Shown here piece by piece: positions 37,488 through 52,375 of a stretch of 64,000 bases of DNA. Position numbers and translations under genes: made by a program. The notes under the pieces are model-generated. The model made no database searches. It was given only the letters and a program-made list of their open reading frames with translations, and was not told the DNA's origin. Positions within the stretch are counted from its first letter, which is position 1, and the number at the start of each line of letters is the position of its first letter. The DNA is taken from positions 592,077-656,076 of the forward strand of contig NZ_FNPW01000001.1 in the NCBI RefSeq assembly GCF_900107395.1, written 5' to 3'. The DNA is from Pseudomonas sp. NFIX28 (lineage in GTDB: Bacteria; Pseudomonadota; Gammaproteobacteria; Pseudomonadales; Pseudomonadaceae).

Positions 37488-37901
37488 CGGGCTTTGGCAC
37501 AGCGTCCTCACACGAACACTGGGTTCCTTCATGCCTGAGGGCTTGTTTGTGGTTCGTAAGCCCTGGCGGGGGAATGCCCTTGCCATTTGAGTGCATTCTC
37601 AGACTGTTGGGTGCAGCGCTATTTTTGGCGGTATTGCCGTTGTCACTCGTCCGCCGATTTTTTGATTCTTGAAGCAGGGAAGGGTGTGGTACCTCCTGAC
37701 GCGGCGACTGGCTTTGCAAGCGCTTTTTACGCCGTGTCCACATGCCGGATCATGCTAATGCCATAGAACCGTTTATTAAGGAAAAGTGCGCAGGTTGTTC
37801 GGCATTTCTCGCGTTATGTCTTAAAGTAGCCGGTTGCCGAAAGAACCGTCATGGCCATAGCCATGAAGGGCTTTCATCCTTTACAAATAAGTGTGGTGAA
37901 G
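37488..37901. other. Intergenic region without recognised content
   Basis: Apart from the leader of the GNAT-Rnk gene, I see no gene, strong hairpin or repeat in this stretch. Confidence 0.4.
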
Positions 37902-38813
37902 ATGAACAAGCCTTTCATTTCGCTGTGCCCTGAAATTACTCGGGCACATGCGCTGACGTTGAAGGATTGGTTGGAGGATGAGCGCGTCACTTGCTATCTG
38001 AGCGATTCACGTGACGTTTCCCGCTCCATCGAGCAAGTCATTGATCGGACTCAATTACCGATCCTGACCCATCTATTCAACCGGGGTGGCCGATTCTTCA
38101 TGGCCTATGACCGGCATGACTCCCCGGTGGGCTTTGTCCGTCTCATCAAGACCGGCTCGAATTGCGAGATAGTCCTAGTCATCGGAGACAGCGACAAATG
38201 GGGCCGAAACCTTGGCGCCCGCACAATCCGCGAAGGCATGAAACTGGCCTTCCTCGACATGCGGGCCGAGAAGCTCATCGCCAAGATCCACGCGGACAAT
38301 GCGCGCTCGCTGAAAGCCTTTCTGCGCAGCGGCTTTCTGCTTGAGAGCGAAACGCCGACATTGAAGTCATTTTCCATGACGGCGGGGCGCTATCTCCAGT
38401 TCTTGCGCGAAGGTGCAGTTGGCGATTCCACTGGGATCTACATCACTGAAATCGACAAGGCCAGGCTCGAGATGCTGATCGCGCTCGAGCAAGGTCCGGC
38501 CGTTGTTGAACTCGAACATGAGCTTGAGCGAGCCATTGTCGTCAAGCCGCAGCAGGTGGCGCGCAATGTCGTCACGATGAACTCTAGGGCCTTGCTGCAG
38601 CTGGACGACAAAGAGATCGAAGTGGCCTTGGTCTATCCTGAAGACGCGGACAGCAGCGCCGGGAAGCATTCCGTGTGTTCCGACATCGGCGCCGCCATCC
38701 TGGGCTATCAGGAGGGGGACGCCATCGACTGGCGAATTTCTGATCGGACCCGCCGGATTGAGATCAGGAAAGTGCTTTACCAGCCGGAGGCCGCAGGCGA
38801 TTTCCACCTGTAA
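37902..38813 (+). CDS. GNAT acetyltransferase fused to a Rnk/GreA-like domain
   Basis: A 303-residue protein of two parts. Residues about 5-150 are a GNAT acetyltransferase (SPVGFVRLI, EIVLVIGDSDKWGRNLGART for the acetyl-CoA region, HADNARSLKAFLRSGF). Residues about 170-300 look like a nucleoside-diphosphate-kinase regulator (Rnk), which shares the C-terminal fold of GreA/GreB: ITEIDKARLEMLIALEQ, VVTMNSRALLQLDDKEIEVALV, SVCSDIGAAILGYQEGDAIDW. Rnk-like domains bind RNA polymerase. The ATG at 37902 follows GTGGTGAAG; longer frames add an unconserved leader. The gene stands alone beside decayed genes. The acetylation target is unknown. Confidence 0.85.
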   Translation: MNKPFISLCPEITRAHALTLKDWLEDERVTCYLSDSRDVSRSIEQVIDRTQLPILTHLFNRGGRFFMAYDRHDSPVGFVRLIKTGSNCEIVLVIGDSDKWGRNLGARTIREGMKLAFLDMRAEKLIAKIHADNARSLKAFLRSGFLLESETPTLKSFSMTAGRYLQFLREGAVGDSTGIYITEIDKARLEMLIALEQGPAVVELEHELERAIVVKPQQVARNVVTMNSRALLQLDDKEIEVALVYPEDADSSAGKHSVCSDIGAAILGYQEGDAIDWRISDRTRRIEIRKVLYQPEAAGDFHL

Positions 38814-38940: not shown

Positions 38941-39155
38941 TTCGCTCTCGATCACGAGATGGTCAACTTCAGTGATGTGATCCAGGCGACAGGGTTTGCG
39001 GTTGCATCGCTGGAGATTGTTGATTGCCGACTCAAGAACTGGGGCATCCGCGATGGCAGACCAGGACCTGTGTGTGCTCGTCCAGATCGAAACGCAAGCG
39101 GCATTGGACAAGATCGAAGAAGTCGCAGCTGTAGAGAGCATCGACGGATTGAGAG
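38941..39155 (+). pseudogene. Fused relics of a 2-keto-4-pentenoate-hydratase-like and an HpcH/HpaI-aldolase-like gene
   Basis: Frame 1 at 38941-39048 reads SDVIQATGFAVASLEIVDCR and then LKNWGI, a good match to the hydratase family (MhpD/HpaH; compare LEIVDSRIxDW). Immediately after, another frame at 39053-39155 reads ADQDLCVLVQIETQAALDKI and EEVAAVESIDGL, an HpcH/HpaI aldolase segment. Neither has a start, an active site or full length. In aromatic meta-cleavage operons these two genes are neighbours, so this looks like a deletion scar of such an operon. Confidence 0.65.
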
Positions 39156-39201
39156 AGTGGACATCAGAAGCAGGTTTGTCGAATCAGTGTTTTGAGCTGC
39201 T

Positions 39202-39234
39202 CATGAACATATCTGGCATAGCACATCATTTAAC
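39202..39234 (-). repeat. Dispersed repeat copy A (related to copies at 39323 and 50809)
   Basis: The 33-base block matches 50809-50841 with five mismatches (CATGAACAYATCTGRCATAG, then YACATSATTTAAC), and the similarity continues at equal spacing for 24 bases upstream. On the minus strand it reads ARYVHEQLKTLIRQ. Confidence 0.6.
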
Positions 39235-39322
39235 TTATGGGCGATGTTTACTGTTCATGAGTGATCGAAACCTCCAATCATTGCTAGGGGGTTTAGCGGG
39301 TGTAGGGAGCCTCATGTTCACA

Positions 39323-39350
39323 GATGTATGTTCATGAAGAGCTGAAAAAG
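39323..39350 (+). repeat. Dispersed repeat copy B, inverted relative to copy A
   Basis: The plus strand reads ATGTATGTTCATGAAGAGCT, i.e. MYVHEELKK, matching the minus-strand reading of copy A about 100 bases away. The two form an imperfect inverted repeat. Confidence 0.45.
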
Positions 39351-39359
39351 GTCAGGGGG

Positions 39360-39502
39360 CGGGTACGCTAGCTGCTTCTGTATCGCTGGCCGCCTTCGGT
39401 AAAGATCTGGACAAGGGCGGGGCAGGGAAGGTGATCCCGGCTGATTCTCCAGTCGCTCCAGCTGAATCCAGCTCAAGTGCTACAAAGGTGCAGAGAAAAT
39501 AA
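39360..39502 (+). pseudogene. Unidentified C-terminal reading-frame fragment
   Basis: An open, start-less stretch reads AGTLAASVSLAAFGKDLDKG, GAGKVIPADSPVAPAESSSS and ends TAA. Composition looks coding, but no family is recognised. Confidence 0.25.
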
Positions 39503-39641
39503 CCGATTCAGATATTTTGACACGCATCTAGGAAACCAGGGGCGATTCAGAGATCCAACCACCACAATCAGAACCGCAGCCATTGCTGGAACGGGTAGCT
39601 ATGCCCACGCTGCGTTCCACTCCGCGACAATATTCGACCGT

Positions 39642-40293
39642 CTAGCAAACCTGCCTGGATAAAGGAGCCCACGAATGGGAAGTATGCGCACCGCGTCGGT
39701 AGTAGCCAGGATCGGCGGAGCGAGGGTGTGATGAGCTTTCACGGCCTCGACCCGTTGAGCTGCGGTCAGCTGCCCAGAGCGGTACTGGTTGAATAAGCCA
39801 TAACAGAAAGCCGTGCAAGCCATCGGTGTCCAGCCACGCAGGGGGCTCAACCTCACCCACATGCGCATAGTAGCTGGACCAGGGCCACGCAGCGGGTTCA
39901 CCCACCATGCCTGCGCGCACCTGCCTCAGCTCCACGTAGCGGCACACCTCCAGCAGGGAAGCATCCCGATCGACCAGAATGGCCTTGAACCGCCCCTGGA
40001 ACAAATGCCTCACCTTGCCGTGCCGTCGGTTGAACACCTGCGTGTACACGCCGTTGACATGCCGCATCAGCCACGAAAGATTCGCCTGCCGGGTATGGAG
40101 CACGAAGTGGTAGTGATTGTCCATGAGGCAGTAGGCCAACGCTTGGGCATCGAAGCGCTGCATGCCCTGAGCCACGACCGCCAGCAGGGCTTCGCGGTCG
40201 GTGTCGTCGACGAAGATCGGCTTGCGGCGGTCGCACTCGGGAAGTGACGTGATAGATCGCGCCGGGGAATTCGATGCGGAGAGGTCTGGTCAT
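39642..40293 (-). pseudogene. Frameshifted Y1/RAYT-type transposase
   Basis: The minus strand begins MTRPLRIEFPGAIYHVTSR, the usual start of REP-associated tyrosine transposases. A one-base insertion near 40231-40240 then shifts the frame; the other frame continues RRKPIFVDDTDREALL, AQGMQRFDAQALAYCLMDNH, YHFVLHT (HYH, the HUH metal motif), GKVRHLFQGRFKAILVDRDA and GEPAAWPWSSY. The last 60 residues also depart from the family, so a second lesion is likely. The enzyme should be inactive. I see no clear REP hairpins next to it. It lies where the immunity gene for the Rhs toxin would be expected. Confidence 0.85.
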
Positions 40294-40481
40294 GGGTTGG
40301 GCAAGTTAAGAGGGAAGGGGGGCAAAAGGCAAGACCTAACCCCGAATCGGACCCCGATCATCGCCTTGACCCCGAATCTGTGGAGTGAACGTCTTGATAC
40401 CGCATTTGCAGACGACCATCTGGACCTTTCGGGAGGGCCGGAGTCAGCCAACGACAGATCGAGCGCGTCACAGGGATGCGC

Positions 40482-43400
40482 TCAGCAACCACAACTTATC
40501 CCAGCTGGATGTACAGAACCATCGGGACCGGTGTGTCCTGTCGCAAAATTTGCGCCATGGTAAAGAATCGAGCAAATCCTGCACGCTTCTATCGGCTGAT
40601 TAATATCGCCTTGACGCCAGGCCAAAATTACCAATCTACCCAAAGAGGGGGCTGTCCAACCGCCGGCCATCAGCGGCAAAATGGGTCCGACCGCCCCACT
40701 CTCCGCACAGGCAAAAATTGATCTACTTCCTCGCGCAACACCTGCCGCATGGGCAGCAGAAATGCGCGCCGGATCAATTAATGAATGACTTATTGATCCA
40801 CTATGCCCGGATTCGCTTATTGCGAAACTGTCATTATCGATATCATAAACCCCCGCTATGACAGTCGGGCTTTCACCAAACGTGCTCATGGTCGCGCCTT
40901 TGGAAACCTCCCTCTTCAAGTACTCGGCAGCACGATCTTCTACTGATCCGTTTAGTCTCCTGAGATCCCCTGTGCCTTGGTGAGCCGCCAAGCCAAGAGG
41001 ATCAATCCACCCCGAGCAATTCGCCGCATACCGAAACAGATTAATTCCACCCAATAACCCCAGGGGATCTTTACTGAGGAAGCCCCCGATATTTCCATCG
41101 TAGTATCTGTGCCGGTTGTAGTGCACCCCTGTTTCGGCATCTCCATACTGACCCTGCAGCCGTATTGGATTGGTGACCTCGTTGACCAGCAGCCGAGCTT
41201 GCCCCCAAACGTCGTACCGCGCCGCCCAGACAACCTGCCCGTCAACTTTGGTCAGCAGCATCGGAGAGCCGTTCGGATCGGTCTGATAGAGATAGTTGGT
41301 TTCGCCTTCCAGTAACGCCAGTGGCACGAAGGTGCTCGGATAGTGCACGTACTCGCGTTGCACCTGGGTTGGTGGCTGCGCCTCACCCGTCTCTTCGGCC
41401 GCTAACACTTCTCCATCCCATCCGAAGCAGATGCAGACGTCACCCGTGCGCTTGAACACGCGCCGCCCCAGCGGGTCGTAACCGTAGATGGTTTCAACTG
41501 TCGGTGTTTCTCCATCGCCGAACGTCAGCCGAGTGTGACTGCGCACTAGCCGCTGATTCGCATCCCATTCCAACGCAAGTGTCTTCGGCTCATTGCCGTC
41601 CAATTGCCGCTCATCCCGCCGCTCCACCAGATTGCCCGCAGCATCGAAGCGGTAGAACACCCCCTCGCACCAACCCTCACGCCGCCATAGGCCGTCCTCC
41701 CGCACTCTGGTCGTCAGCCGATCCCCCACCGGATCCTGGAAGAACCGCTTCAGCTTCCCTTGCGGATCGACATGCTCGACGATCTGCCCCAGCGGGTCGT
41801 AGCGGTACTGGTCCAGCCCGTACTGGCTGTCCTTGCGGTGCGTCAGGTTGCCGGCCGCGTCATAGGCGTATTGCGTGTCGAACAGCCACTCCGCTTCTCG
41901 TCTGACACCTTGCGCCGTGAGCCGTCCTTCGGCGTCGTACTGGTAGTGCCGCTCCAGTGCCGGCGCCAAGGTCTCCTTGACCACCTGTCCCGCCGCATCG
42001 CGTTCGATGGTGATCGGCGGATCGTCGTTGATGTGGATGGACGTCGGCTGCCCGAGCGCGTCGTATGCATAGGCGACCGTGTTGCCCGCGCTGGTTTCGC
42101 GCCGGATGCGTCGGCCCAGCGCATCGAAGCCGTTCTTGATGACGAAGTCGCCTTGCCGCTCTTCGAGCAGCCGCCCCTCGGCATCGAGGGTTCTCGTCAC
42201 TGTCACGTGCTCGTTGGCGCAGCCGGTGAGGTTGCCATTCGCGTCGAAGTCGAAGGTTTCCTCGAATTGGCGGCCCGCCTCGAACGGATGCTCGAAAAGC
42301 TTGCTCCGGATGCGCCCGAGTTTGTCGGTCGTGTACTCGATCATCCGACCCGGCGGGTCGCAGCTTTGTTTCAGGTGCCCGGCGATGTCGAAGACGTAAC
42401 GCGTGGCTTGGCCCCAGTAGTCCACTTCCTCGACCACCCGACCGAGCGCGTCGCGCTTGAGTTCGTACCGCTCGCCGCGCTGATTGCTCACGCCGACGAG
42501 CTGTTCCTCGGTGTCGTAGTGGTAGTGCACCACGTGCCCGTCGGGCTGATGGCGTTTGGCGACCAGCCCTTGCCCGAAGTACTCGAAGCGCGTGCGGGCA
42601 CCGTTCTCGTCCTCGTAATGGGTCAGGTTGTCCTGCGCGTCATAGGCGCAGCGGACGTGGGCACTGCCCGGCAGGGTCGCCTCGACCAGCCGGCTCTTGC
42701 TGTCGTAGCGGTACGTCGTACTTCTGCCCAGCGGGTCGCTGCGTTCGAGCACGTTGCCCAGCAGATCGCGCTTGATCCGGGTGACCTGGCCCAGCGCGTT
42801 CTCGACTCTGACCAGGTAGCCGTCGCTGTCGTAGCCGAGCCGGGTGGTGGCGTTCAGGGCGTCGGTCACGCCCACCAGCAGGCCGGCCTCGCTGTATTCG
42901 TAGGTGGTTACCGCTCCCAGCGGGCTGGTCTGTTCGATCAGCAAGCCCCGCTCGTCCCAGCGCTGGCGCCAAGTGGCGCCGCTGGGGGCGGTGATCGCCG
43001 TGGGCTTGTTGCACGCATCCACCTGGATCGCCAGCGCACTGCCGTCTGGTCGTATGAGTTCGAGCAGGTTGCCTCGCTTGTCGTAGGCGTATTGGATACG
43101 GTGGTTGCCCGCATCCACCACGGCCGTGGTGCGTCCCGACTCGTCGTATTCGTAAAGCGTGCGCCCACCCAGCGGGTCGATTTCCAGGACGGGCAGGCCA
43201 TTTTCGTCGCACTGGACGGTGGAGACGTGGCCCAGCGAGTCGGTGATGTGCACCTCGCGGACCGCCGGGGCGTAGGCGAAATGGTAGTCATATAGCCCGC
43301 CGTCGCCCCAGGCATGCACCACCTGCCAGGTCGCGCCGCTCTCGTCGTATTCGTAATGGAACGACAGCCCGGTGCGGTTGGTGTGCCCCACCATGTGGTG

Positions 43401-46400
43401 GCCGTCATAGGCGAAGCAGTACGGGTTGCCCAGCTCGTCGCGGACGGCGGTGAGGTGGCCCTGTTCGTCGTGCTCGTAGGTCACGAAGGTGTGGCTGAAG
43501 TCGGCATCGGACGCGCACAGGGTCAGCGAGCGGATGTGCTGCCCGGCGTATTCGACGAGCAGGTAGCGTCCGCCCGATTCACGGATCGTACGCAGCCGGC
43601 CGTCCTCCCGCTCGTAATCCAGCCAGTTGCCGCACAGGTCGCTGGTGCGGTCCAGCGGGACTTCGCGCAAGCCGTCCTCACTACGAACCAGCAGCGCCTT
43701 GGGGAAGTGGTAGATCAGATCGCTCTTGGTGCGCACGCGCCATTCGTCGCCGTGGTCGCTGAGCAGCGCACCGTCCATCAGTTCCAGCACGGCCGCAGCG
43801 TCGCCGATCCCGGCAGGCAACATGGGGAACAGAGTCGGCCCTTCGCTGGGGTGGCGGAACATCACGTCACCATCGGCCGCATCGATTTCCAGCCGGGCAT
43901 CGGCAGGGCTCTCCCAACCGATGCCGCAGGCACCGGGGCGCTCACTGCCGGAGGCGTAGTTGCGTGTCCATTCCAGCGGGATGTGCCAGGGCAAGGTAAA
44001 GTCGCTTTGCCCGACGCTGACCTCGCCGTTCAGGATGTTCACCGGCTCGGCCCGCAATATTTTGCACTTCAGGACACCGGCTTTCATGTTCTTGAACAGC
44101 TTCTGGCGGAAAGTGGGTTTCTTCGGTGAAGAGGGGGCATCGTGTCCTTTGCTCCCCGGCGTATGCCCTTTGGGGGCCTCGCAATCGGGGCCTTTTCCGT
44201 CCGAGCCTTCCTTGTTGCCCTTAGAGGAGCTACAAGCGGCCATTAATCCCAGCACATCCACCGCTGCCAAGGGATTCGCCGGATAGCTATAGAGATTAAT
44301 GCCTCCTTCTTGTCCCATCGGATCCGACTGCAAATACCGCCCCAGCCTCGGGCAGTACACGCGAAACCGATTGCAATGCATCCCCGTCTCCCGCTCGAAC
44401 CAATGCCCCGGCCAGCGCAGGTCATATTCGACCGTATTGCCCTCGGCGACGCGGAGCAGGCCGTATGGGTCGATGTCTTCCGCCCGCCAGGCTTCCCGTC
44501 CCCGGGCATCCTCGATGCGTTCCGGCAGGCCGACCTGGTTGCAGAAGACGAAGTACGCGCGCCCCGATTCGGGCGGGGCGTCGGGGGTGTCGTAGTCGAG
44601 GAACAGGAAGGGCAGGAAGGCGTCTTCGTTGGCGTAGACGTAGAGCCGTAGCCGGCCGTCGGGCGCGGTTTCGGCCGCGAGGCGGTCGCCGTCCCAGTGG
44701 TATTCGGTGCGGGCCTGGTCCAGGGTCTTGGCGATGCGCCGGCAGAGGCCGTCGTATTCCGCCGTCCAGGCGTCCGGACGGTCGCTCCAGGTGACCTTCG
44801 CCAGCAGGTCCATGCTGTTGTAGTGGTAGCGGGTGCTGTGGCCATGGGCGTCCACCACTTCGCAGAGATGGTTGCGGTGGTCGTAGCGGTAGGTGCCTGC
44901 GCTGGAGATTTCCAGGCGGTTGCCTTCGCGGTAGCGCATCCACGGCACGGCCGGGGTGGCCAACAGGTTGCCGCCGGGGTCGTAGGCGTAGTGGCGTGTC
45001 GCCGAGCCGTCGCGGATTTCCCAGACGAGGCGGTGGGCGGCGTCGTAGCGGTATTCGCGGATGCCGTCGATGTTGCTCTCTACCCGCCGCAGTTCGCCTT
45101 CGCCGCTGTAGTGGTAGCGCTGCCAGCGGGCCGCTTCGGGCTGGCCGGAGGACCAGTGCAGACGGCCGATGCAGCGGCCGTCGAGGTCGAAGCCGCGCAG
45201 TTCGCGGCTGCCGTTGCCCAGGGCCAGCAGCAGGTGGCCGTCGGCGCCGCGTTGCAGGTGGTGGGTGCCGCCGTCCGGGGTGTGGATCAGCAGGGGACCG
45301 CCCGGCTGCACGGCGTAGTCCACGGTGAAACGGTCGAAGTAGGTGGTCCGCGCCAGGTGCCGGCCCCGGTACTGGTGGCGCACGCCCTGGCCGTCGCGCA
45401 GGTCGCTGGTACGCCGGTCCGCCCAGTCGTGGCTCATGCCCACCTCGTGGGTGTCGGTGGAGGCTTCGGTGAAGTGGCCGCGCTCGTCGTACTGGTAGCG
45501 ATGCACTTCGCCGGAGGCCAGCAGGCGTGTGCTGTGCAGGCCGTTGTCGCCCACTTCGAAGCGCAGCAGCAACTCGCCGTAGGCGTCGCGCTTCTCGATC
45601 AGGCGGTCGCCGGTGTCGTAGGCGTAGCTTTCGCGGGTGACGCCGTGGCGGACGACGCGGGTGATGCGGTCCTTGTAGTCGTAGTCGTAGGTGCTTTCGT
45701 TGCCGTTGGCGTCGATGACCTGGCGGACCTTTTCGCGTCGGGTGTAGCCGTAGCGCACGCTGTGGCCGAGCGGGTCGGTCTCGCTGCCGCGCAGGTTCCA
45801 GGAGGTGGTGGTGTAGTGGTGCTCGCGGCCGTCCTTGTCAGTGAAACGGATCAGGTTGCCGGCCGGGTCGTGTTCGAAGTGTTCGCGGCGGCCGTAGGCA
45901 TCGAGGCGCTCCACTATCCGGCCCAGCACGTCATGGCGGGTTTGCGGCGGCAACTGTTCGGGCAGGGCGAGCACGTCGGTAGCCAACTCGGCCAGTTCGG
46001 CCGGCAGGTCGAGGGGGGGGGCGGGCAAGTGCTCGATGGCTTCGCCCCACTGCAGGCCGAGCGGCGTGCCCGGCACCTTGTGTTCCAGTGGGTTGGGCAG
46101 GTTGGGGGCGTCGTCCTTGGTCGGCCAGACGTTGCCCCAGCGGTCCATGCGCCCGGTGTTATGGCCGTCCGGGTCGTAGAGCCAGCGCATCACGCGGCCG
46201 CCGGAGTCCTCTTCTTCGACGATGTGGCCGTCGGCGTGGGTGAGGATGTTCCGTTCGCCTTCGTAGGGGTCGATGACGCACACGACGGTGCCGGCCTCGT
46301 TGTAGAGGAACAGCCATTCGCCGCCGTCGGCCTCGGTGACGCGGGTGCGACCGGGTTCGTAGGCGAGGTCCACCCGCCACAATTGGTCCTGGCCTTCGCT

Positions 46401-48035
46401 GTGCACGCAGCGGCCCTGGGCGTCGTAGGCGTAGGAGAAGGAGTAGCCGTTGCGGTCGGTCACCCGCGTCATGCGGCGCTGGGCGTCGTAACCGTGGAAG
46501 CCGCTGTGGCCGAGGGCGTCGTGCCAGGTGGCGAGGCAGCCGGCGCCATCGTATGCGTAGCGCGCCACGCTCAGGGTGTCGTCGGGCCGGGCGCGCAGTA
46601 CCTCGGTGATGTGCCCCTGGGTGTCGTAGTGGAACCACCAGGTCTGCAGGGGCTCGCCGGCTTCGTCGACGTCGCAGAGGCATTCGAGCCGGCCGTCGGG
46701 GTGATAACGCGGGGTGCGGCGGATGATATTGTCGACGACGATCCCGGCCAGGCGGGCGTGAATATCCTCCGGCCTGCCGTGTTCGAAGCCGAGTGTGGCG
46801 TGACGATCATGGCGGAGGATGAAGCGGGTCGGGCTGGGCTGGCTCAGCGTATAACCGCCGAAGGTGCCGGCGTAATGGCCGTCCGCCTGGCGCGGGAATT
46901 CGTACTCCCGGCGGCGCGGGTCGATGTACAGGGCGCGGGTGCGCAGCAGGAGCAGTTCGTGCTGGAGGCTGTGGCGGAAGCCGAAGCCCAGCGGGCCGTC
47001 TTCCTTGCTCCAATGACTGTAGTAGTAGCGCTCCCAGGTGAAGCGGCCTGGGCCCTGGTCCTGGTAATCGACCAGTTCGTCCGCGCTGGCACCGGTAACC
47101 GGGTCTACCGGGTGGCCGGGGCGGTCGCAATCGGGGTTGGCTTTCTTGCTCTTGGGGGTGGCGAGTTCGGGGAGCTTCTTCGCTGCCTTGGCCAGGCCGC
47201 CCGCCACGTCCATGGCGTCGGGCAGGGGGAAGCCGCCGATCAGCACGGTGGGGTTGCCCATCGCCAGGGTGCCGGTGCTCGGCGGGACGCCGGGGTCCTT
47301 GCCGAGCAAGGCGCCGAGGGCCATGGTGGCGGCGTCGGCGGCAGCCTGGGCGGCAGTCATGGCCGCTTCGCCGCCTTCGCCACCCTCGGCCTGCGCCGCC
47401 GCCGAGAGGCCGCCCGCTGCCGCGCCGACGGCGGTCATGGCCATGCCGAACTTGCCGAAAGCGGAGGCCGGGTTGCAGTGGCGGGTGATGTCCAGGCTCA
47501 TGCGGGCGGCCCGCGAACCGCCGATGTAGGTGTTGCTGGAGCCGGTCCAGATGTCGTAGCCGGGGAAGAAGCTGCCACAGGTGGGCGCGATGCCCAGATC
47601 GCCGGCCCGCGCGGCGGGGATGCCGCCGATCAGCACGCTGACGCAGCACGAGCCCAGGGTGGTGCCGAGGCTGGGCAGTGGCGCGTTGAGGCTGGGCGGG
47701 TGCGGATGGGCATGCGGCACACCCCGGTGCGGCACACCGAGCACTGCGGCGGGCATGCCCGGCGTGAGGTGGTCGAGCGGTGAGACCAGTAGCGCCAGGC
47801 CGGTGTTGAGCAGCTCGAAGGGGGCGCCGACCACGGCCAGGGCGGCGTTGACCCAATGGCTGACCACGCCGACCTCGCCCTGTTCGGGCGGCGGTGCTTC
47901 TTGGAACGGCAGGGCGGTGTTGTTGACCACCTCAGCCAGGGCATCGACGCTGGTATCGCCGGTGGGAGCGATCAACGGTTCCGCGGCCGGTTGTTCGCCC
48001 GCTTCGGGGAGCTTGGCGGTGGTGTTCCAGTTCAT
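40482..48035 (-). CDS. PAAR-Rhs polymorphic toxin with two Rhs cores and a deaminase-like tip
   Basis: A 2517-residue T6SS-type effector. Residues about 40-230 hold hydrophobic segments and a PAAR-like spike (AAVLGVPHRGVPHAH, CCVSVLIGGIPAARAGD, NTYIGGSRAARM). A DUF6531 start (NPDCDRPGHPVDPVTGASAD) opens the first YD-repeat core, which closes at about 1230-1265 with RYLQSDPMGQEGGINLYSYP. A short charged linker follows, then a second DUF6531-like start (EPVNILNGEVSVGQSDFTLP, about 1330) and a second core closing near 2320 with GGFLSKDPLGLLGGINLFRY. The last 165 residues are the toxin: Cys2443-Ala-Glu2445 and Cys2485-x-x-Cys2488 fit the zinc site of nucleic-acid deaminases. The start overlaps the TPR gene as ATGA. 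No immunity gene follows. Confidence 0.9.
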   Translation of the reverse strand: MNWNTTAKLPEAGEQPAAEPLIAPTGDTSVDALAEVVNNTALPFQEAPPPEQGEVGVVSHWVNAALAVVGAPFELLNTGLALLVSPLDHLTPGMPAAVLGVPHRGVPHAHPHPPSLNAPLPSLGTTLGSCCVSVLIGGIPAARAGDLGIAPTCGSFFPGYDIWTGSSNTYIGGSRAARMSLDITRHCNPASAFGKFGMAMTAVGAAAGGLSAAAQAEGGEGGEAAMTAAQAAADAATMALGALLGKDPGVPPSTGTLAMGNPTVLIGGFPLPDAMDVAGGLAKAAKKLPELATPKSKKANPDCDRPGHPVDPVTGASADELVDYQDQGPGRFTWERYYYSHWSKEDGPLGFGFRHSLQHELLLLRTRALYIDPRRREYEFPRQADGHYAGTFGGYTLSQPSPTRFILRHDRHATLGFEHGRPEDIHARLAGIVVDNIIRRTPRYHPDGRLECLCDVDEAGEPLQTWWFHYDTQGHITEVLRARPDDTLSVARYAYDGAGCLATWHDALGHSGFHGYDAQRRMTRVTDRNGYSFSYAYDAQGRCVHSEGQDQLWRVDLAYEPGRTRVTEADGGEWLFLYNEAGTVVCVIDPYEGERNILTHADGHIVEEEDSGGRVMRWLYDPDGHNTGRMDRWGNVWPTKDDAPNLPNPLEHKVPGTPLGLQWGEAIEHLPAPPLDLPAELAELATDVLALPEQLPPQTRHDVLGRIVERLDAYGRREHFEHDPAGNLIRFTDKDGREHHYTTTSWNLRGSETDPLGHSVRYGYTRREKVRQVIDANGNESTYDYDYKDRITRVVRHGVTRESYAYDTGDRLIEKRDAYGELLLRFEVGDNGLHSTRLLASGEVHRYQYDERGHFTEASTDTHEVGMSHDWADRRTSDLRDGQGVRHQYRGRHLARTTYFDRFTVDYAVQPGGPLLIHTPDGGTHHLQRGADGHLLLALGNGSRELRGFDLDGRCIGRLHWSSGQPEAARWQRYHYSGEGELRRVESNIDGIREYRYDAAHRLVWEIRDGSATRHYAYDPGGNLLATPAVPWMRYREGNRLEISSAGTYRYDHRNHLCEVVDAHGHSTRYHYNSMDLLAKVTWSDRPDAWTAEYDGLCRRIAKTLDQARTEYHWDGDRLAAETAPDGRLRLYVYANEDAFLPFLFLDYDTPDAPPESGRAYFVFCNQVGLPERIEDARGREAWRAEDIDPYGLLRVAEGNTVEYDLRWPGHWFERETGMHCNRFRVYCPRLGRYLQSDPMGQEGGINLYSYPANPLAAVDVLGLMAACSSSKGNKEGSDGKGPDCEAPKGHTPGSKGHDAPSSPKKPTFRQKLFKNMKAGVLKCKILRAEPVNILNGEVSVGQSDFTLPWHIPLEWTRNYASGSERPGACGIGWESPADARLEIDAADGDVMFRHPSEGPTLFPMLPAGIGDAAAVLELMDGALLSDHGDEWRVRTKSDLIYHFPKALLVRSEDGLREVPLDRTSDLCGNWLDYEREDGRLRTIRESGGRYLLVEYAGQHIRSLTLCASDADFSHTFVTYEHDEQGHLTAVRDELGNPYCFAYDGHHMVGHTNRTGLSFHYEYDESGATWQVVHAWGDGGLYDYHFAYAPAVREVHITDSLGHVSTVQCDENGLPVLEIDPLGGRTLYEYDESGRTTAVVDAGNHRIQYAYDKRGNLLELIRPDGSALAIQVDACNKPTAITAPSGATWRQRWDERGLLIEQTSPLGAVTTYEYSEAGLLVGVTDALNATTRLGYDSDGYLVRVENALGQVTRIKRDLLGNVLERSDPLGRSTTYRYDSKSRLVEATLPGSAHVRCAYDAQDNLTHYEDENGARTRFEYFGQGLVAKRHQPDGHVVHYHYDTEEQLVGVSNQRGERYELKRDALGRVVEEVDYWGQATRYVFDIAGHLKQSCDPPGRMIEYTTDKLGRIRSKLFEHPFEAGRQFEETFDFDANGNLTGCANEHVTVTRTLDAEGRLLEERQGDFVIKNGFDALGRRIRRETSAGNTVAYAYDALGQPTSIHINDDPPITIERDAAGQVVKETLAPALERHYQYDAEGRLTAQGVRREAEWLFDTQYAYDAAGNLTHRKDSQYGLDQYRYDPLGQIVEHVDPQGKLKRFFQDPVGDRLTTRVREDGLWRREGWCEGVFYRFDAAGNLVERRDERQLDGNEPKTLALEWDANQRLVRSHTRLTFGDGETPTVETIYGYDPLGRRVFKRTGDVCICFGWDGEVLAAEETGEAQPPTQVQREYVHYPSTFVPLALLEGETNYLYQTDPNGSPMLLTKVDGQVVWAARYDVWGQARLLVNEVTNPIRLQGQYGDAETGVHYNRHRYYDGNIGGFLSKDPLGLLGGINLFRYAANCSGWIDPLGLAAHQGTGDLRRLNGSVEDRAAEYLKREVSKGATMSTFGESPTVIAGVYDIDNDSFAISESGHSGSISHSLIDPARISAAHAAGVARGSRSIFACAESGAVGPILPLMAGGWTAPSLGRLVILAWRQGDINQPIEACRICSILYHGANFATGHTGPDGSVHPAGISCGC

Positions 48036-49297
48036 TGGACCGACTCGACCGGAGCAGTTTTCGGCGTGCCATCGTCCAGGGCGGCTTTCTCTGCCCTGAA
48101 GCCGCGTACCTGTTCACGCAAACCGGCGTCGGCACAGAGGGCGATCAGGCGGTCGAGAATCGAGCGGCAGGGTTCGAGGCAGCCGAACTGCAGGGCCAGG
48201 TCCTTGGCCGTCACCCAGGTGCGCGCCGCTTCGGTGAGTTTGCCGGCCCCCCGCTGCGCTTCACCGAGTTGCTCCAGCGCGTCGAGCTTGGTGTTGAGGA
48301 ACATCAGCTTGCCGGCGCAGCGCTCGGCCAGTTCCAGGTAGCCTTGCGCTTCGCCGCAGCGCCCCACGCGCAGGCAACTACCGCCCGCAGCCATCAGCAG
48401 GTTCAGGGTGACACTCAGGTCATTACCGTCGGCGGCCTGCGCAAGCGCCTGCTGGTAGCGCTGCCTGGCCAGGGCATGATTGCCCTGGCGGGTCGCGACG
48501 TCACCCGCGCCACCGAGGGCAAGCGCCTGGCCGATGCTGTCGTCCTGCTGGTGGTGGTAAGCATGCAGCAGGGCGTATTTCTGCGACGCCTGATCGAGGC
48601 GGCCATGGGCCAGATCGAAGGCCGCGAGCTGGGTCAGGGCCTGCATGCGCTCGGCCACTGGCAGCGCGGGGTCGTTGACGCTGCGGGCCAGACCGTCGGC
48701 CGCCTTGGCGACGGAGAAGTCGATGCTCAGGACGCAGGTGTGGTGGGCCTGGGCGTCGGCGAACCGGGGCAGCAGGAAGGGCGCGGCTCGGTCGTCGCGG
48801 ACGATGAAGCGCTGGCCCTCCATCCACGGCTCGACGTCCTCAAGCGCCAGCAGGCGGATGATCAGCTCCAGGTAGCCGTTCGGGTCGCCGATCGAAGCCG
48901 GCGCGAATCCCCAGACGATACAGGCGTGCGCCGGCACGCAGCGGCGAATGTGCTCAATGGCGGCTTGCAGCCGCGCTGCCGGCTGGCCCGCAGGGTCGGA
49001 GCAGGCCAGCGGCAGCGGCGGCCACGGTGCTTGCTCGTCCTCCACGAGGAATTCGTTGCCGGCGCGAATCTGCATGGCCAGTGAATCGACGCAGCGCTGC
49101 AGGTAGGCGGCACTGTCCGGGCAGTCGAACGGAAAGAGCAGGAAGATATGGCTGGGCCATTGCCGGTCCCAGTTCTTCAGGACGCCGAACGGGAAGGCAC
49201 TGTCGCAGTCGGCCATGTCGAGGATGAGTGTGGGCTGGTCGGGTTGTTCGATGAACGCCTGCAAGCCGGCTTCCATCGTGGCGAATTCACGCTTCAT
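48032..49297 (-). CDS. TPR-containing protein of an Rhs/T6SS cassette
   Basis: A 421-residue soluble protein without signal peptide. The N-terminal 220 residues form a domain I do not recognise (LILDMADCDSAFPFGVLKNW, HIFLLFPFDCPDSAAY, ACIVWGFAPASIGDPNGYLE). From about residue 225 helical repeats of TPR type follow (AAFDLAHGRLDQASQKYALL, GDVATRQGNHALARQRYQQA, EQLGEAQRGAGKLTEAARTW). It lies between DUF6484 and the Rhs gene with an ATGA overlap to the latter, so it is probably an adaptor or chaperone for loading the effector. That role is inferred from position. Confidence 0.75.
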   Translation of the reverse strand: MKREFATMEAGLQAFIEQPDQPTLILDMADCDSAFPFGVLKNWDRQWPSHIFLLFPFDCPDSAAYLQRCVDSLAMQIRAGNEFLVEDEQAPWPPLPLACSDPAGQPAARLQAAIEHIRRCVPAHACIVWGFAPASIGDPNGYLELIIRLLALEDVEPWMEGQRFIVRDDRAAPFLLPRFADAQAHHTCVLSIDFSVAKAADGLARSVNDPALPVAERMQALTQLAAFDLAHGRLDQASQKYALLHAYHHQQDDSIGQALALGGAGDVATRQGNHALARQRYQQALAQAADGNDLSVTLNLLMAAGGSCLRVGRCGEAQGYLELAERCAGKLMFLNTKLDALEQLGEAQRGAGKLTEAARTWVTAKDLALQFGCLEPCRSILDRLIALCADAGLREQVRGFRAEKAALDDGTPKTAPVESVQ

Positions 49298-49312: not shown

Positions 49313-49945
49313 TCAGTTCAGCCGGATGAAGCGACCTCGCACCACAGTTTCGGCGTCGGTACGGATATCGACGCCGCCCCGCCCGCCACGCAGTTCGATG
49401 GCCTCGGCCCGCAGCCGCAGTTTGCCGTCGACCAGCAGGTCGACATCGTCGCCGATCAGGCGAACCACCGGCCCCTGGCTGGAGCCCTGGACCTCTATCA
49501 GCGAGTTGCCGCGGGCATCGGCGATGCGCACGCACTGGCCGGAGGGCACCGTGATGGTCTGGCTCGCTTCGCTCGGGGGCGGCTGTATTGCGCCGGGACA
49601 GGGTGGCTCCAGCATGGCGACCACCAGGGCTTCGGGCCAGTTGGCGGGCTGATCCAGCAGGACGCGGTCGCCCCGCTGCGGCACCACGGTGCGGACGCAT
49701 TCGAGCCATCGTGCGACCTGTTCACTGCCCGCCGACCAGCGCACGAACACGTAGCCGGGCAGCTCGGAATGATGGGTATCGATGACTTCGCCGAGCAGGG
49801 ACCGGGGGCGTTCGCTGGTGGGACTCGGCGTGGCTTTCGGCTCCTGCCGGGGCGGTGTCCGGCTGCGTTCCAGCAGGTCGCGCAGGGACGCGATGGGATC
49901 TTCCGTGGAGGTTTCGGAGGGTAGGGGAGTGGAGATGGGTAGCAT
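49313..49945 (-). CDS. DUF6484 protein, T6SS effector-associated
   Basis: A 210-residue protein. The N terminus is Pro/Ser-rich; the middle (SLLGEVIDTHHSELPGYVFV, PQRGDRVLLDQPANWPEALV) is the DUF6484 domain. The C-terminal third is beta-rich with a gp5/VgrG-needle-like look (GNSLIEVQGSSQGPVVRLIG, DVDLLVDGKLRLRAEAIELR). GAAAGG precedes the ATG at 49945. Such proteins are encoded before TPR and PAAR-Rhs genes in Pseudomonas and probably help mount the effector on the spike (inference). No VgrG gene is in the window. Confidence 0.75.
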   Translation of the reverse strand: MLPISTPLPSETSTEDPIASLRDLLERSRTPPRQEPKATPSPTSERPRSLLGEVIDTHHSELPGYVFVRWSAGSEQVARWLECVRTVVPQRGDRVLLDQPANWPEALVVAMLEPPCPGAIQPPPSEASQTITVPSGQCVRIADARGNSLIEVQGSSQGPVVRLIGDDVDLLVDGKLRLRAEAIELRGGRGGVDIRTDAETVVRGRFIRLN

Positions 49946-50808
49946 GTCGGTCGCCTTTCATTGGGCTCCGCCCGGAGGGAGCGGGAGGTCACGTCATGGC
50001 GCCGACAGCGGGAACTGGTGCCGGTGGGGTAGCGAGGGGGGGACGTTCTCGGCCGGGTTTCTGGGCCGAGCGCCTGGGTTCCATTCGAACGCGCCTGCAC
50101 ATCACGGGCTCGTTGGCATTTCACACGGCGTGCGGGAAGGACTTGAAACTTTCGGAGAGAACCAATGGGGAGGGTCAGCCAATCTGCCAAACGCCGGTAA
50201 TTTCCGGCGAAACATCCTTTGCATTTGGCTGAACGATAAAGGGTGTTATCGATCAGCGTGTTCACTTTGAATAATCCGTTATTGGCAGTGATTGATTTCC
50301 ATTAGTGAGAAACGGTAGCTCAAGGCGAGGCTTGACTTCAACGAAACCGAATATAACGATTATTTATCGATGAGCCGTTGGTATGTAGTGTGTGGAATTT
50401 GTATGTGTTTCACATTTAGCGTGACTGGGCAGAGATGCTTTGTCTTTTATTATTTTTTCTTATGTATTTCAAAGAGTTGTAATTATAAAAATTGCAGTTC
50501 GCTGGACGTCCCCATGAAATCGAAAAGCAGGTGAAACGAAATCCAGATGAAGTCTTATGGCCAGCATTCTGATTGCTAATAATGCTTTCATACTGACGCT
50601 TATCCTGAGTGCTTATTGCAAAATAATCTTTCAATAAACGAAGTCATCCAAGCATTCAGGCAGCAATCTGAATTGAGGCCTCGGCTTTTGGCATAGGAAT
50701 AGAAAGCCTGGATCGCCCGCGAAGGATTCGCCATGAACACGAAGGACATGGCCCTTAAAGAAAATGGATGATAGAAGCGAACTTGTCGAAACAGGGCCTT
50801 ACGAAGCA

Positions 50809-50841
50809 CATGAACACATCTGACATAGTACATGATTTAAC
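50809..50841 (-). repeat. Dispersed repeat copy C
   Basis: Matches copy A at 39202-39234 (28 of 33 bases) and, at equal spacing, part of the 24 bases upstream. The minus strand reads YVRCVHVLRKALFRQ, similar to copy A's ARYVHEQLKTLIRQ. Copies A and C lie on either side of the Rhs cassette in the same orientation. Confidence 0.6.
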
Positions 50842-50897
50842 ATAATATACATTATGCGAATCATTATATGGAGGCCTGGTGGCCGTGGGTTGTGAGC

Positions 50898-51135
50898 GTC
50901 AGGAATAAAGTGGAATTTCGTCAGCTAAAAAATGTAATCCCTTGGTAAACAGCCACTTAGACGACTCTTAAAACGGCTATGCCCGGAAGTTCCCTGCGAA
51001 TGTCAGGAATAAAGTGGAACGGACCACTTCCTTTTGTCTTTTTTTCCACCTTTCGAATGACAAGACTCATGGGTGGCTTTCGCATCTGGTGTCAAAATCA
51101 CAGATATTTCGCCACGATTACACTTTTTAGCTGAC
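50898..51135. mobile_element. MITE-like or insertion-sequence end remnant
   Basis: An 18-base direct repeat GTCAGGAATAAAGTGGAA occurs at 50898-50915 and 51002-51019. GTCAGCTAAAAAATGTAATC at 50920-50939 is inverted, with one mismatch, at 51116-51135. No transposase gene lies inside. Repeated motifs at element ends are seen in IS21-like elements, but the family cannot be fixed from sequence. Confidence 0.55.
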
Positions 51136-51169
51136 TTTCTGGTCTGCATTGCCCAGCCTGAAACGTCGC

Positions 51170-51451
51170 CTAGCTGAAACCATTAGCTCGCAATTCCGCC
51201 TGGACCAAATGAAGTAACTCACTGGTCGGCAGTTCGCTCTTGAACTGATATGCCGCTGCCAACAACGTTAGAGGTTGGACACCCAAAAGCCCTGCAATTT
51301 CTTGAATCTTTTCAAGTGTTGGGGACTTCAGACCTCTTTCCAAGGTGCTCAGATAAGTCCGACTACTCACGTTCGAAAAGTCCTCCTGGGTCTTCCCCTG
51401 TTTTTTGCGAATCTGTTTGAGGGCCTGTCCGAATGCTGCACTAAGTTCCAT
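51170..51451 (-). CDS. XRE-family HTH regulator
   Basis: A 93-residue Cro/CI-type DNA-binding protein: FGQALKQIRKKQGKTQEDFS, NVSSRTYLSTLERGLKSPTL, EKIQEIAGLLGVQPLTLLAA. Length and pattern match small stand-alone repressors. The start at 51451 begins at the HTH domain; a longer reading includes the operator region. It is divergent from the unknown gene at 51537, and a perfect palindrome lies between them, so it probably represses both. Confidence 0.85.
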   Translation of the reverse strand: MELSAAFGQALKQIRKKQGKTQEDFSNVSSRTYLSTLERGLKSPTLEKIQEIAGLLGVQPLTLLAAAYQFKSELPTSELLHLVQAELRANGFS

Positions 51452-51490
51452 TTGCTGTACCTGCAAAAGGAACGATGAAGCAATAATGAT

Positions 51491-51515
51491 CACTATAGGG
51501 CTACAATCTATAGTG
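51491..51515. promoter_or_regulatory. Probable XRE operator
   Basis: CACTATAG at 51491-51498 and CTATAGTG at 51508-51515 are perfect inverted 8-base arms separated by nine bases. It lies between the divergent starts at 51451 and 51537. Confidence 0.7.
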
Positions 51516-51536
51516 TTCATTTCTACTGGAGGTTGT

Positions 51537-51974
51537 ATGTTTCTGACGCTTGAACACGCGGAGGTGCCGCTCGGAGCCTTAGTGAAAGGCGCGCATTCAT
51601 GGCGTTACGTCGAGTACCTGACCTCACAGCCGTGGTTCTATGTGATGGCGCTGGAACATGTTGAAGGCATAGCTCGTCCAGCGACACTGCTGATCAAAGC
51701 TCTCGATGACTTACTGGAGCTCGAAGGCGTTGACAATGATGCTTGGGAAATCACGCGGGTGCATTTGGTTAGCCCTGGACACCTGAACGGCACAGAGGAT
51801 TGGAAGATGGAACGGTTGAAGGAAATTGCAAAGATCAAAAGCAATGGTAACTCGAGTCTCCTCTACCTGCTCCATTCAGGCGTGGTTTACTTCGAAAATA
51901 GCCAAGCACGCTCGTATCTGTCCAACTCCAATAAGGTGGTGCTTTTCAGGCAAGCACCCGATAGTGGAACCTGA
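51537..51974 (+). CDS. Unknown protein controlled with the XRE regulator
   Basis: A 145-residue soluble protein with no signal peptide or recognised family. Notable stretches are TLEHAEVPLGALVKGAHSWR, PWFYVMALEHVEGIARPATL, and LLYLLHSGVVYFENSQARS. GGAGG stands a few bases before the ATG at 51537. The divergent XRE gene and shared palindrome point to tight repression, as in toxin-antitoxin, phage-related or defence modules, but nothing in the protein itself decides this. Confidence 0.65.
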   Translation: MFLTLEHAEVPLGALVKGAHSWRYVEYLTSQPWFYVMALEHVEGIARPATLLIKALDDLLELEGVDNDAWEITRVHLVSPGHLNGTEDWKMERLKEIAKIKSNGNSSLLYLLHSGVVYFENSQARSYLSNSNKVVLFRQAPDSGT

Positions 51975-52375
51975 CATGCGCTTGCTAGGCGCCCAATGAG
52001 TAAAACCGAGGGTGCAACAGCTTCAGAAAATGCACATTTCTGTAAACTGCTTAGCGGCTCTAGAATGCCTGCTACAGAAGTATTTACTGGATTCTTCTGC
52101 ACATTTTTTTTCACATATTTCAAAGTCGCTTCAGCATGGCTGAGCGATCAGCTCACGTGCCTGGCGAAGGCAATTGCGCATTCCTGGGACTGTGCCAGCG
52201 GGGCTCGAACAACGCGTTGTTCCGCCTGGAGTATGGGCTCTCCCAGGGGATCGATTTCTTTGGCGATATGTTCTACCTGATCCACAACACCCGAACCGTC
52301 GGTGATGCGCTGCTCGAACTGGCCACCCTCCCCTTGGCGCTGAGCCAGCCTATAGACAATCAAGGGAAACGGAGG
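51975..52375. other. Gap between the XRE module and the PucR-like regulator
   Basis: The left half shows no recognised feature. The right half contains the regulator relic described separately. Confidence 0.4.
52200..52368 (+). pseudogene. Possible relic of an AraC-type regulator ligand domain
   Basis: A start-less stretch reads NNALFRLEYGLSQGIDFFGD and MFYLIHNTRTVGDALLELAT, then LPLALSQPI, after which the frame runs antisense through the next gene. The pattern resembles the N-terminal domain of AraC regulators with an arabinose-binding-like fold (GxxLLxSPTLGDAL region). Both ends are missing. Confidence 0.35.

What the first reader, a model, noticed from the sequence alone, without database searches (positions are those of the whole stretch)
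40294..40481. No immunity gene after the Rhs toxin
Rhs toxins normally have a small immunity gene directly downstream. Here only 188 bases without a usable leftward frame separate Rhs from a broken transposase. Either immunity is encoded elsewhere, the toxin is inactive, or its target is absent from kin.
Basis: seen in the sequence. Interest (0 to 1): 0.6.

Follow-up and report, generated by a model that had tools for sequence, protein, structure and literature searches.

The report
Rhs toxin orphaned by transposon debris
A large intact bacterial toxin gene has no neighbouring antidote gene; the DNA where the antidote should be is scrap from broken transposable elements, so the toxin looks orphaned by a deletion.

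Summary
In detail: 188 bases separate the stop of the Rhs gene (40482-48035, minus strand) from a frameshifted RAYT-like transposase, and no plausible immunity gene lies there. The interval is not plain spacer. Bases 40385-40477 are the first ~31 codons of an IS21-family istA, frameshifted and pointing at rhs; the homology ends 4 bases from the Rhs stop. The 1.5 kb beyond holds more scraps (RAYT, arsenic-resistance, NTPase and aldolase pieces). The simplest reading is a deletion between istA and the end of rhs that took the rest of the IS and the immunity gene. Among 107 related Rhs tips, 106 have an ORF of at least 80 aa starting within 60 bases of the stop (random positions: 364 of 800). The 167-aa tip has no relative in the collections searched. 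It carries CAE...CxxC at the spacing of toxin deaminases and 29 residues after the last Cys, so a deaminase core is probably complete, but no family profile confirms it. Immunity in trans could not be tested properly, because no relative of the tip names the partner. Toxicity and deaminase activity are inferred, not shown.

The parts
40294..40481 (.). Interval of the finding: mobile-element debris, no credible gene
40385..40477 (+). Remnant of IS21-family istA, codons 1 to about 31, one extra base breaking the frame, reading toward the Rhs gene; homology stops 4 nt from the Rhs stop codon
   Evidence: blastn match 40381-40477 to 4 annotated plasmid istA genes, 77-80% identity, E 3e-14 to 8e-10 (11 records matched in all at E up to 1); in 10-nt bins 2.1 to 4.5 of 5 references agree over 40381-40470 (mean 3.7), 0.9 to 1.5 beyond 40490
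40339..40378 (.). Two direct copies of ACCCCGAATC, 30 nt apart; REP-like arrangement beside the RAYT (REP label recalled, not tested; short two-copy repeats can be chance)
39642..40293 (-). Broken IS200-type (RAYT-like, label recalled) transposase: start in one frame (39898-40293), body in another (39642-40175)
   Evidence: PF01797 E 8.2e-9 on 39642-40175; start frame without Pfam match; stops shown; 69% DNA identity over 235 nt to an open frame in L008
39550..39638 (-). Scrap of an arsenic resistance protein gene
   Evidence: 82% over 89 nt to a Pseudomonas plasmid gene, 79% to a Stutzerimonas one
39373..39538 (+). Scrap of a gene whose open frame in another genome (L007) reads as a P-loop NTPase (name from its GxxGxGKS stretch, recalled)
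   Evidence: 77% over 173 aligned columns
38996..39337 (+). Scrap with a piece of HpcH/HpaI aldolase
   Evidence: PF03328 E 5.1e-5, 23.1 bits, below the curated cut-off of 25
40482..48035 (-). Open Rhs protein frame, 2517 aa: PAAR motif, two DUF6531, two Rhs core regions, C-terminal tip
40482..40985 (-). C-terminal tip, 167 aa, deaminase-like by motif; no relative found
40701..40709 (-). CAE motif (tip residues 93-95), candidate zinc ligand and catalytic Glu
40572..40583 (-). CRIC (CxxC) motif (tip residues 135-138), candidate zinc ligands
48032..49297 (-). TPR-like protein directly upstream, overlapping the Rhs start by 4 nt; possible adaptor (inferred)
   Evidence: TPR_12 E 4.2e-5, below cut-off

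Best explanation
An open, probably type VI-delivered Rhs toxin with a deaminase-like tip has lost its adjacent immunity gene. An IS21-family element once lay downstream, with istA reading toward rhs. A deletion then joined codon ~31 of istA to the very end of rhs, removing the rest of the IS and whatever stood between it and rhs, the immunity gene included. RAYT insertion and further decay left the remaining flank as scrap. SHOWN: debris in the interval, homology break 4 nt from the Rhs stop, no adjacent immunity ORF, open Rhs frame, CAE and CxxC motifs present. INFERRED: that an immunity gene was there before, that one deletion removed it, the order of events, T6SS delivery, and that the tip is a deaminase. 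How the cell copes is open: immunity in trans, no effective delivery to kin, a dead tip, or a target that kin lack; the first and the third of these are compatible with the deletion and are listed below as rivals on what happened next.
For: IS21 istA 5' end at 40385-40477 against five plasmid references (three annotated istA, one annotated integrase, one record without annotation), with a drop in agreement next to the Rhs stop. The break is inside istA (codon ~31), not at an IS end, so simple insertion does not explain it; a deletion or recombination is needed. The flank 38.8-40.3 kb holds pieces of several broken genes. Of 107 related Rhs tips, 106 have an ORF of 80 aa or more at the stop; these include the other clear Rhs gene of this genome (contig C39), with a 138-aa ORF 1 nt after its stop. 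The interval has no second copy in this genome. Tip: CAE-to-CxxC distance 42, against 40-47 in the 11 of 13 YwqJ-type sequences that carry both motifs; allowing 39-49, 16 of 50000 shuffles of the tip match, and of 118 Rhs tips only this one; with a wide gap (18-73) 31 of 20000 shuffles and 3 of 118 tips match; 29 residues follow the last Cys, against 12-36 in the 13 YwqJ-type sequences.
Against: No relative with the same tip was found, so the ancestral arrangement is not seen. No deaminase family matches the tip in Pfam (E up to 10) or NCBIfam (E up to 1); a profile of the 13 YwqJ-type sequences puts the tip 5th among 2001 (2000 shuffles and the tip), and hhalign gives 2% probability. AlphaFold2 without an alignment gave no usable model (pLDDT 39 and 37). 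The tip's GC at second codon positions (0.57) is unusually high: 1 of 109 other tips reaches it, though its frame is open and GC3 (0.44) is like that of other tips (mean 0.42). A deletion end just 4 nt past a natural stop codon is a coincidence this model does not explain; the tip may have lost a few end residues.
Confidence: 0.68

Rival explanations
1. Immunity is encoded in trans: the partner gene sits elsewhere in the genome, so the toxin is active and the cell protected. Compatible with the deletion.
For: The 2517-codon frame and both motifs stay intact while the neighbouring istA and RAYT pieces are frameshifted, which would fit continued selection on a tolerated toxin.
Against: No candidate found: a profile of three immunity proteins from YwqJ-type Rhs loci gave no match in this genome, a weak test because the tip is very divergent and the empty answer had no positive control.
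Confidence: 0.2
2. The toxin never needed an adjacent immunity gene: its substrate or entry route is absent from kin, or it aims at non-bacterial cells.
For: Precedent: Zhang et al. 2012 (PMC3482391, passages read) report CxE-type deaminase toxins of Wolbachia without accompanying immunity genes and infer host targeting. In one search, for 4 of 13 YwqJ-type loci the longest following ORF starts more than 60 nt after the stop (only the longest was reported, so a shorter near one could be missed).
Against: PAAR-Rhs architecture with an exchangeable low-GC tip is that of interbacterial Rhs toxins, and related loci nearly always have an ORF at the stop (106 of 107). The istA break indicates that DNA was lost where the immunity gene would lie.
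Confidence: 0.12
3. The toxin is already dead: the tip lost its true end at the istA junction, or the operon is silent, or the secretion machine is gone.
For: The Rhs stop lies 4 nt from the junction and the flank is decayed. Secretion genes outside the window were not looked for.
Against: CAE and CxxC intact; 29 residues follow the last Cys, within the 12-36 of the 13 YwqJ-type sequences. Rhs frame fully open.
Confidence: 0.25
4. Assembly artefact: a false join places unrelated debris after rhs.
For: Mobile-element sequence lies at the junction.
Against: Interior of a 781 kb contig, interval single-copy in the genome, and only about 93 nt of the IS present, without the long repeats that cause misjoins.
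Confidence: 0.05

Closest known systems
Rhs polymorphic toxin / RhsI immunity pairs (Koskiniemi et al. 2014, PMC3967940, abstract and passages seen)
   Same: Rhs body with a variable C-terminal tip; [quoted passage not shown]
   Different: Here no downstream immunity ORF but IS21/RAYT debris. It is the reverse of that paper's 'orphan' modules, which keep the immunity gene but lack the Rhs body
YwqJ-type toxin deaminases (PF14431)
   Same: CAE (or HAE, CGE) then CxxC 40-47 residues apart in 11 of 13 sequences; six of the 13 sit on Rhs proteins of the same genus
   Different: The tip is not recognised by the Pfam model (own genome no match); the six Rhs-borne YwqJ tips are followed by 134-162 aa ORFs, this one is not
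DddA / SsdA interbacterial DNA deaminases (PMC7901873, passages seen)
   Same: Deaminase-fold toxins with a zinc site, used between bacteria and paired with immunity proteins
   Different: No sequence relation shown; activity of this tip untested; no immunity gene found
Wolbachia CxE deaminase toxins without immunity genes (PMC3482391, passages seen)
   Same: CxE...CxxC deaminase-like toxin domain without neighbouring immunity gene
   Different: Those carry a C-terminal latrotoxin-type domain and belong to endosymbionts; here a PAAR-Rhs protein, with signs that DNA was deleted

Membership tests
Rhs polymorphic toxin (PAAR-Rhs) | RHS repeats and Rhs-associated core | tested here: met
   PF05593 E 1.9e-93; TIGR03696 E 1.3e-41, two stretches
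Rhs polymorphic toxin (PAAR-Rhs) | PAAR motif for T6SS loading | tested here: met
   PF05488 E 2.6e-7, 31.2 bits, cut-off 27
Rhs polymorphic toxin (PAAR-Rhs) | variable C-terminal tip of different base composition | tested here: met
   Tip GC 52% against 66.5% of the rest of the gene; GC3 0.44, 109 other tips mean 0.42; but GC2 0.57, reached by 1 of 109
Rhs polymorphic toxin (PAAR-Rhs) | immunity gene directly downstream | tested here: not met
   longest ORF near the stop 53 aa, antisense to istA
Rhs polymorphic toxin (PAAR-Rhs) | delivery by a working T6SS | not tested
Toxin deaminase superfamily | [HCD]xE and CxxC motifs | tested here: met
   CAE at 93, CRIC at 135; motif definition from PMC3482391
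Toxin deaminase superfamily | match to a deaminase family profile | tested here: not met
   none in Pfam at E 10 or NCBIfam at E 1; own YwqJ-type profile 5th of 2001, hhalign 2%
Toxin deaminase superfamily | deaminase fold | tested here: inconclusive
   AlphaFold2 models pLDDT 39 and 37, not searched against structures
Toxin deaminase superfamily | deamination of a base | not testable with these tools
   needs a bench assay
IS21 family (debris in the interval) | istA coding sequence | tested here: met
   first ~31 codons, 77-80% DNA identity to four annotated istA genes
IS21 family (debris in the interval) | istB and both terminal repeats | tested here: not met
   homology ends after about 93 nt of istA, on the other side lies the Rhs gene; a remnant, not an element

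The most novel reading that the evidence does not exclude
A catalytically intact, highly divergent deaminase-type Rhs toxin has been kept open while its downstream flank decayed, in a cell without its cognate immunity gene. The producer would survive because immunity now comes from an unrelated locus or because the cell tolerates the toxin, for example as a low-level mutagen of itself and its kin.
Probability: 0.15. Interest if true: 0.65.

Novelty: new variant of a known kind. Interest (0 to 1): 0.4.

Why it matters
Toxin and immunity genes are usually treated as inseparable. A locus where the immunity gene appears deleted while the toxin frame stayed open is a natural test of how cells tolerate their own interbacterial toxin, and of whether trans immunity or loss of delivery comes first. 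The tip may also be a deaminase too divergent for current family models.

Tried and rejected
Relatives of the tip: none accepted in 398 genomes of the genus, 369 of the class and 293 of the order (the draws overlap in part). Besides the window itself, one search listed three rows (E 2e-4 to 8e-4, all with stops inside the match) and four (E 0.005 to 0.006, at a limit of 0.01); I looked at all seven and take them for chance. One of them, L159, reaches E 2e-6 when the tip is compared with its 3-kb locus alone, but its frame reads as a Rieske-type oxygenase (recalled) and the match lacks the CxxC part. Two scans of genome contigs (81 and 596 pattern matches, none confirmed) and one of viral contigs (6, none) see close relatives only. 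Nothing in plasmids or phages or PDB sequences. Against 112 other Rhs tips of 30 aa or more the best phmmer E was 0.047, to a mis-anchored 68-aa stretch. PF04717 on the tip (E 0.05, on a sub-stretch 0.02; below cut-off) rejected as chance.

IS21 copies: none by DNA besides the window in 57 relatives of genus and order; in 328 genomes of the genus four weak rows of 24-29 nt, not used (only two candidates per genome scored).

One search read the nine minus-strand YwqJ loci on the wrong strand; replaced. In one search the seven loci that I judged by eye not to be simple Rhs tips (L134-L139, L144) have their longest next ORF at -32, +291, +174, -1, +172, -4 and +64; the statement on Rhs tips uses the six others (L140-L143, L145, L146: -1, -20, -10, -4, -4, -4). 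The 107 leave out 4 matches without a stop, 5 tips under 60 aa, 3 duplicates, 2 with under 400 nt of flank and the window itself; the one miss is L130 (55 aa). They are ranked by core similarity in the capped list, not a random draw, and near-identical tips remain. Plus-strand frames 40201-40563 and 40476-40721 rejected: they run antisense to the RAYT start and to the tip; no family search was made for them.

Fold searches were not run because both models are of very low confidence. T6SS completeness was not tested.

Full report
What is there. The window lies in a 6.73 Mb genome (G000, contig C29). On the minus strand a short gene cluster runs leftward: a 210-aa protein (49313-49945), a 421-aa TPR-like protein (48032-49297) and a 2517-aa Rhs protein (40482-48035). 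The Rhs protein has a PAAR motif, two DUF6531 and two Rhs core regions and ends in a 167-aa tip. The tip has 52% GC against 66.5% for the rest of the gene. Its GC3 (0.44) is like that of 109 other tips (mean 0.42), but its GC2 (0.57) is reached by only 1 of them.

The observation. Between the Rhs stop (40482-40484) and the start codon of the RAYT-like frame (40291-40293) are 188 bases, as reported. Leftward frames of 44 and 53 codons exist, with GTG and TTG starts. I measured how unusual that is: among 107 distinct tips of related Rhs genes, 106 have an ORF of 80 aa or more starting within 60 nt of the Rhs stop, median offset -4, and 91 of the 106 lie between -20 and +12. Random positions in loci L054-L133 give 364 of 800, so the size test alone is permissive; the offsets are tight. 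The second clear Rhs gene of this genome, counted among the 107, has a 138-aa ORF 1 nt after its stop.

What the interval is. A blastn of the flank against plasmids found IS21-family istA genes of Variovorax, Polaromonas and Delftia (records). I aligned it to five references (three annotated istA, one annotated integrase, one record without annotation). Window 40385-40477 is the first ~31 codons of istA with one extra base that breaks the frame. In 10-nt bins 2.1 to 4.5 of the 5 references agree over 40381-40470 (mean 3.7), and 0.9 to 1.5 beyond 40490. The istA fragment reads toward rhs. Because the break is inside istA and not at an IS end, a simple insertion does not explain it: the rest of istA, istB and the right end are missing on the rhs side, so DNA was lost between istA and rhs (inference). 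The two leftward frames are antisense to this fragment. On the other side lie two copies of ACCCCGAATC 30 nt apart and a RAYT-like transposase split over two frames. Further left come scraps of an arsenic resistance gene, of an NTPase-like gene and of an HpcH/HpaI aldolase; the stretches between them were not identified.

What the tip is. No relative was accepted in any collection searched and no Pfam or NCBIfam domain passes. By eye it reads as a deaminase: strand-turn-strand (residues 41-56), CAE at 93, a hydrophobic strand (117-124), CRIC at 135; the strands are those of a low-confidence model. I fetched YwqJ-type sequences from the same genus (13 of 199 genomes, own genome none). In 11 of 13 both motifs are present, 40-47 residues apart; here 42. 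Allowing 39-49, 16 of 50000 shuffles of the tip match, and none of the other 117 Rhs tips. With a wide gap 31 of 20000 shuffles and two other Rhs tips match. A profile of the 13 sequences places the tip 5th of 2001 (2000 shuffles and the tip), and hhalign gives 2%. So 'deaminase-like' rests on motif, spacing and order, not on proven homology. The 29 residues after the last Cys are within the 12-36 of the 13 YwqJ-type sequences, so the core is probably whole even if a few end residues were lost. AlphaFold2 from one sequence was useless.

Where immunity might be. The six YwqJ-type tips that sit on Rhs proteins are followed at -20 to -1 by ORFs of 134-162 aa; of the other seven loci, four have their longest following ORF further than 60 nt away. 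A profile of three of these ORFs found nothing in this genome; the tool notes that this shows nothing without a positive control. Without a relative of the tip the true partner cannot be named, so immunity in trans stays open.

How it works, and what is known. Most likely this is an interbacterial PAAR-Rhs toxin whose immunity gene was deleted. Koskiniemi et al. [quoted passage not shown] this locus departs from that. Zhang et al. (PMC3482391, passages) describe CxE deaminase toxins without immunity genes and infer host targets, the best precedent for the rival that none was needed. The interbacterial deaminases DddA and SsdA (PMC7901873, passages) have immunity proteins. Four searches of the paper library (Rhs with deaminase; orphan toxins lacking immunity; Rhs with insertion sequence and pseudogene; YwqJ) showed 15 of 39, 13 of 13, 15 of 29 and 7 of 7 papers; none of the titles and abstract openings shown is about an Rhs gene whose immunity gene was removed by an IS. 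That speaks for these listings only.

Judgement. The finding is real and mostly explained: the downstream flank was broken up by mobile elements. The more interesting part is that the 7.5 kb toxin frame and its motifs are intact although the neighbouring istA and RAYT pieces are frameshifted. If the debris decayed in place, the toxin has outlived its immunity gene for some time; if the fragments arrived already broken, it may not have.

Noticed in passing
window 40482-48035: The Rhs protein holds two Rhs cores in tandem (two DUF6531, two Rhs-associated core matches); its open frame is 2543 codons against at most 1905 in the other rows shown in the capped list.
   Followed up: partly
window 50250-52150: About 1.9 kb upstream of the Rhs cluster in which the gene-picking script chose only short frames of unusual, mostly low GC and one of 189 aa.
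   Followed up: no
window 37851-38813: One ORF joins a GNAT acetyltransferase to an Rnk/GreA-type C-terminal region.
   Followed up: no
L051 and L052 (contigs C23 and C4 of the same genome): Two very large Rhs-repeat ORFs whose core looks TccC-like (recalled); the longest ORF near the end of L052 starts 262 nt away. Left alone.
   Followed up: no
window 39149-39237: A stretch of up to 89 nt recurs at 73-86% identity in several genomes of the genus; nature unknown.
   Followed up: no
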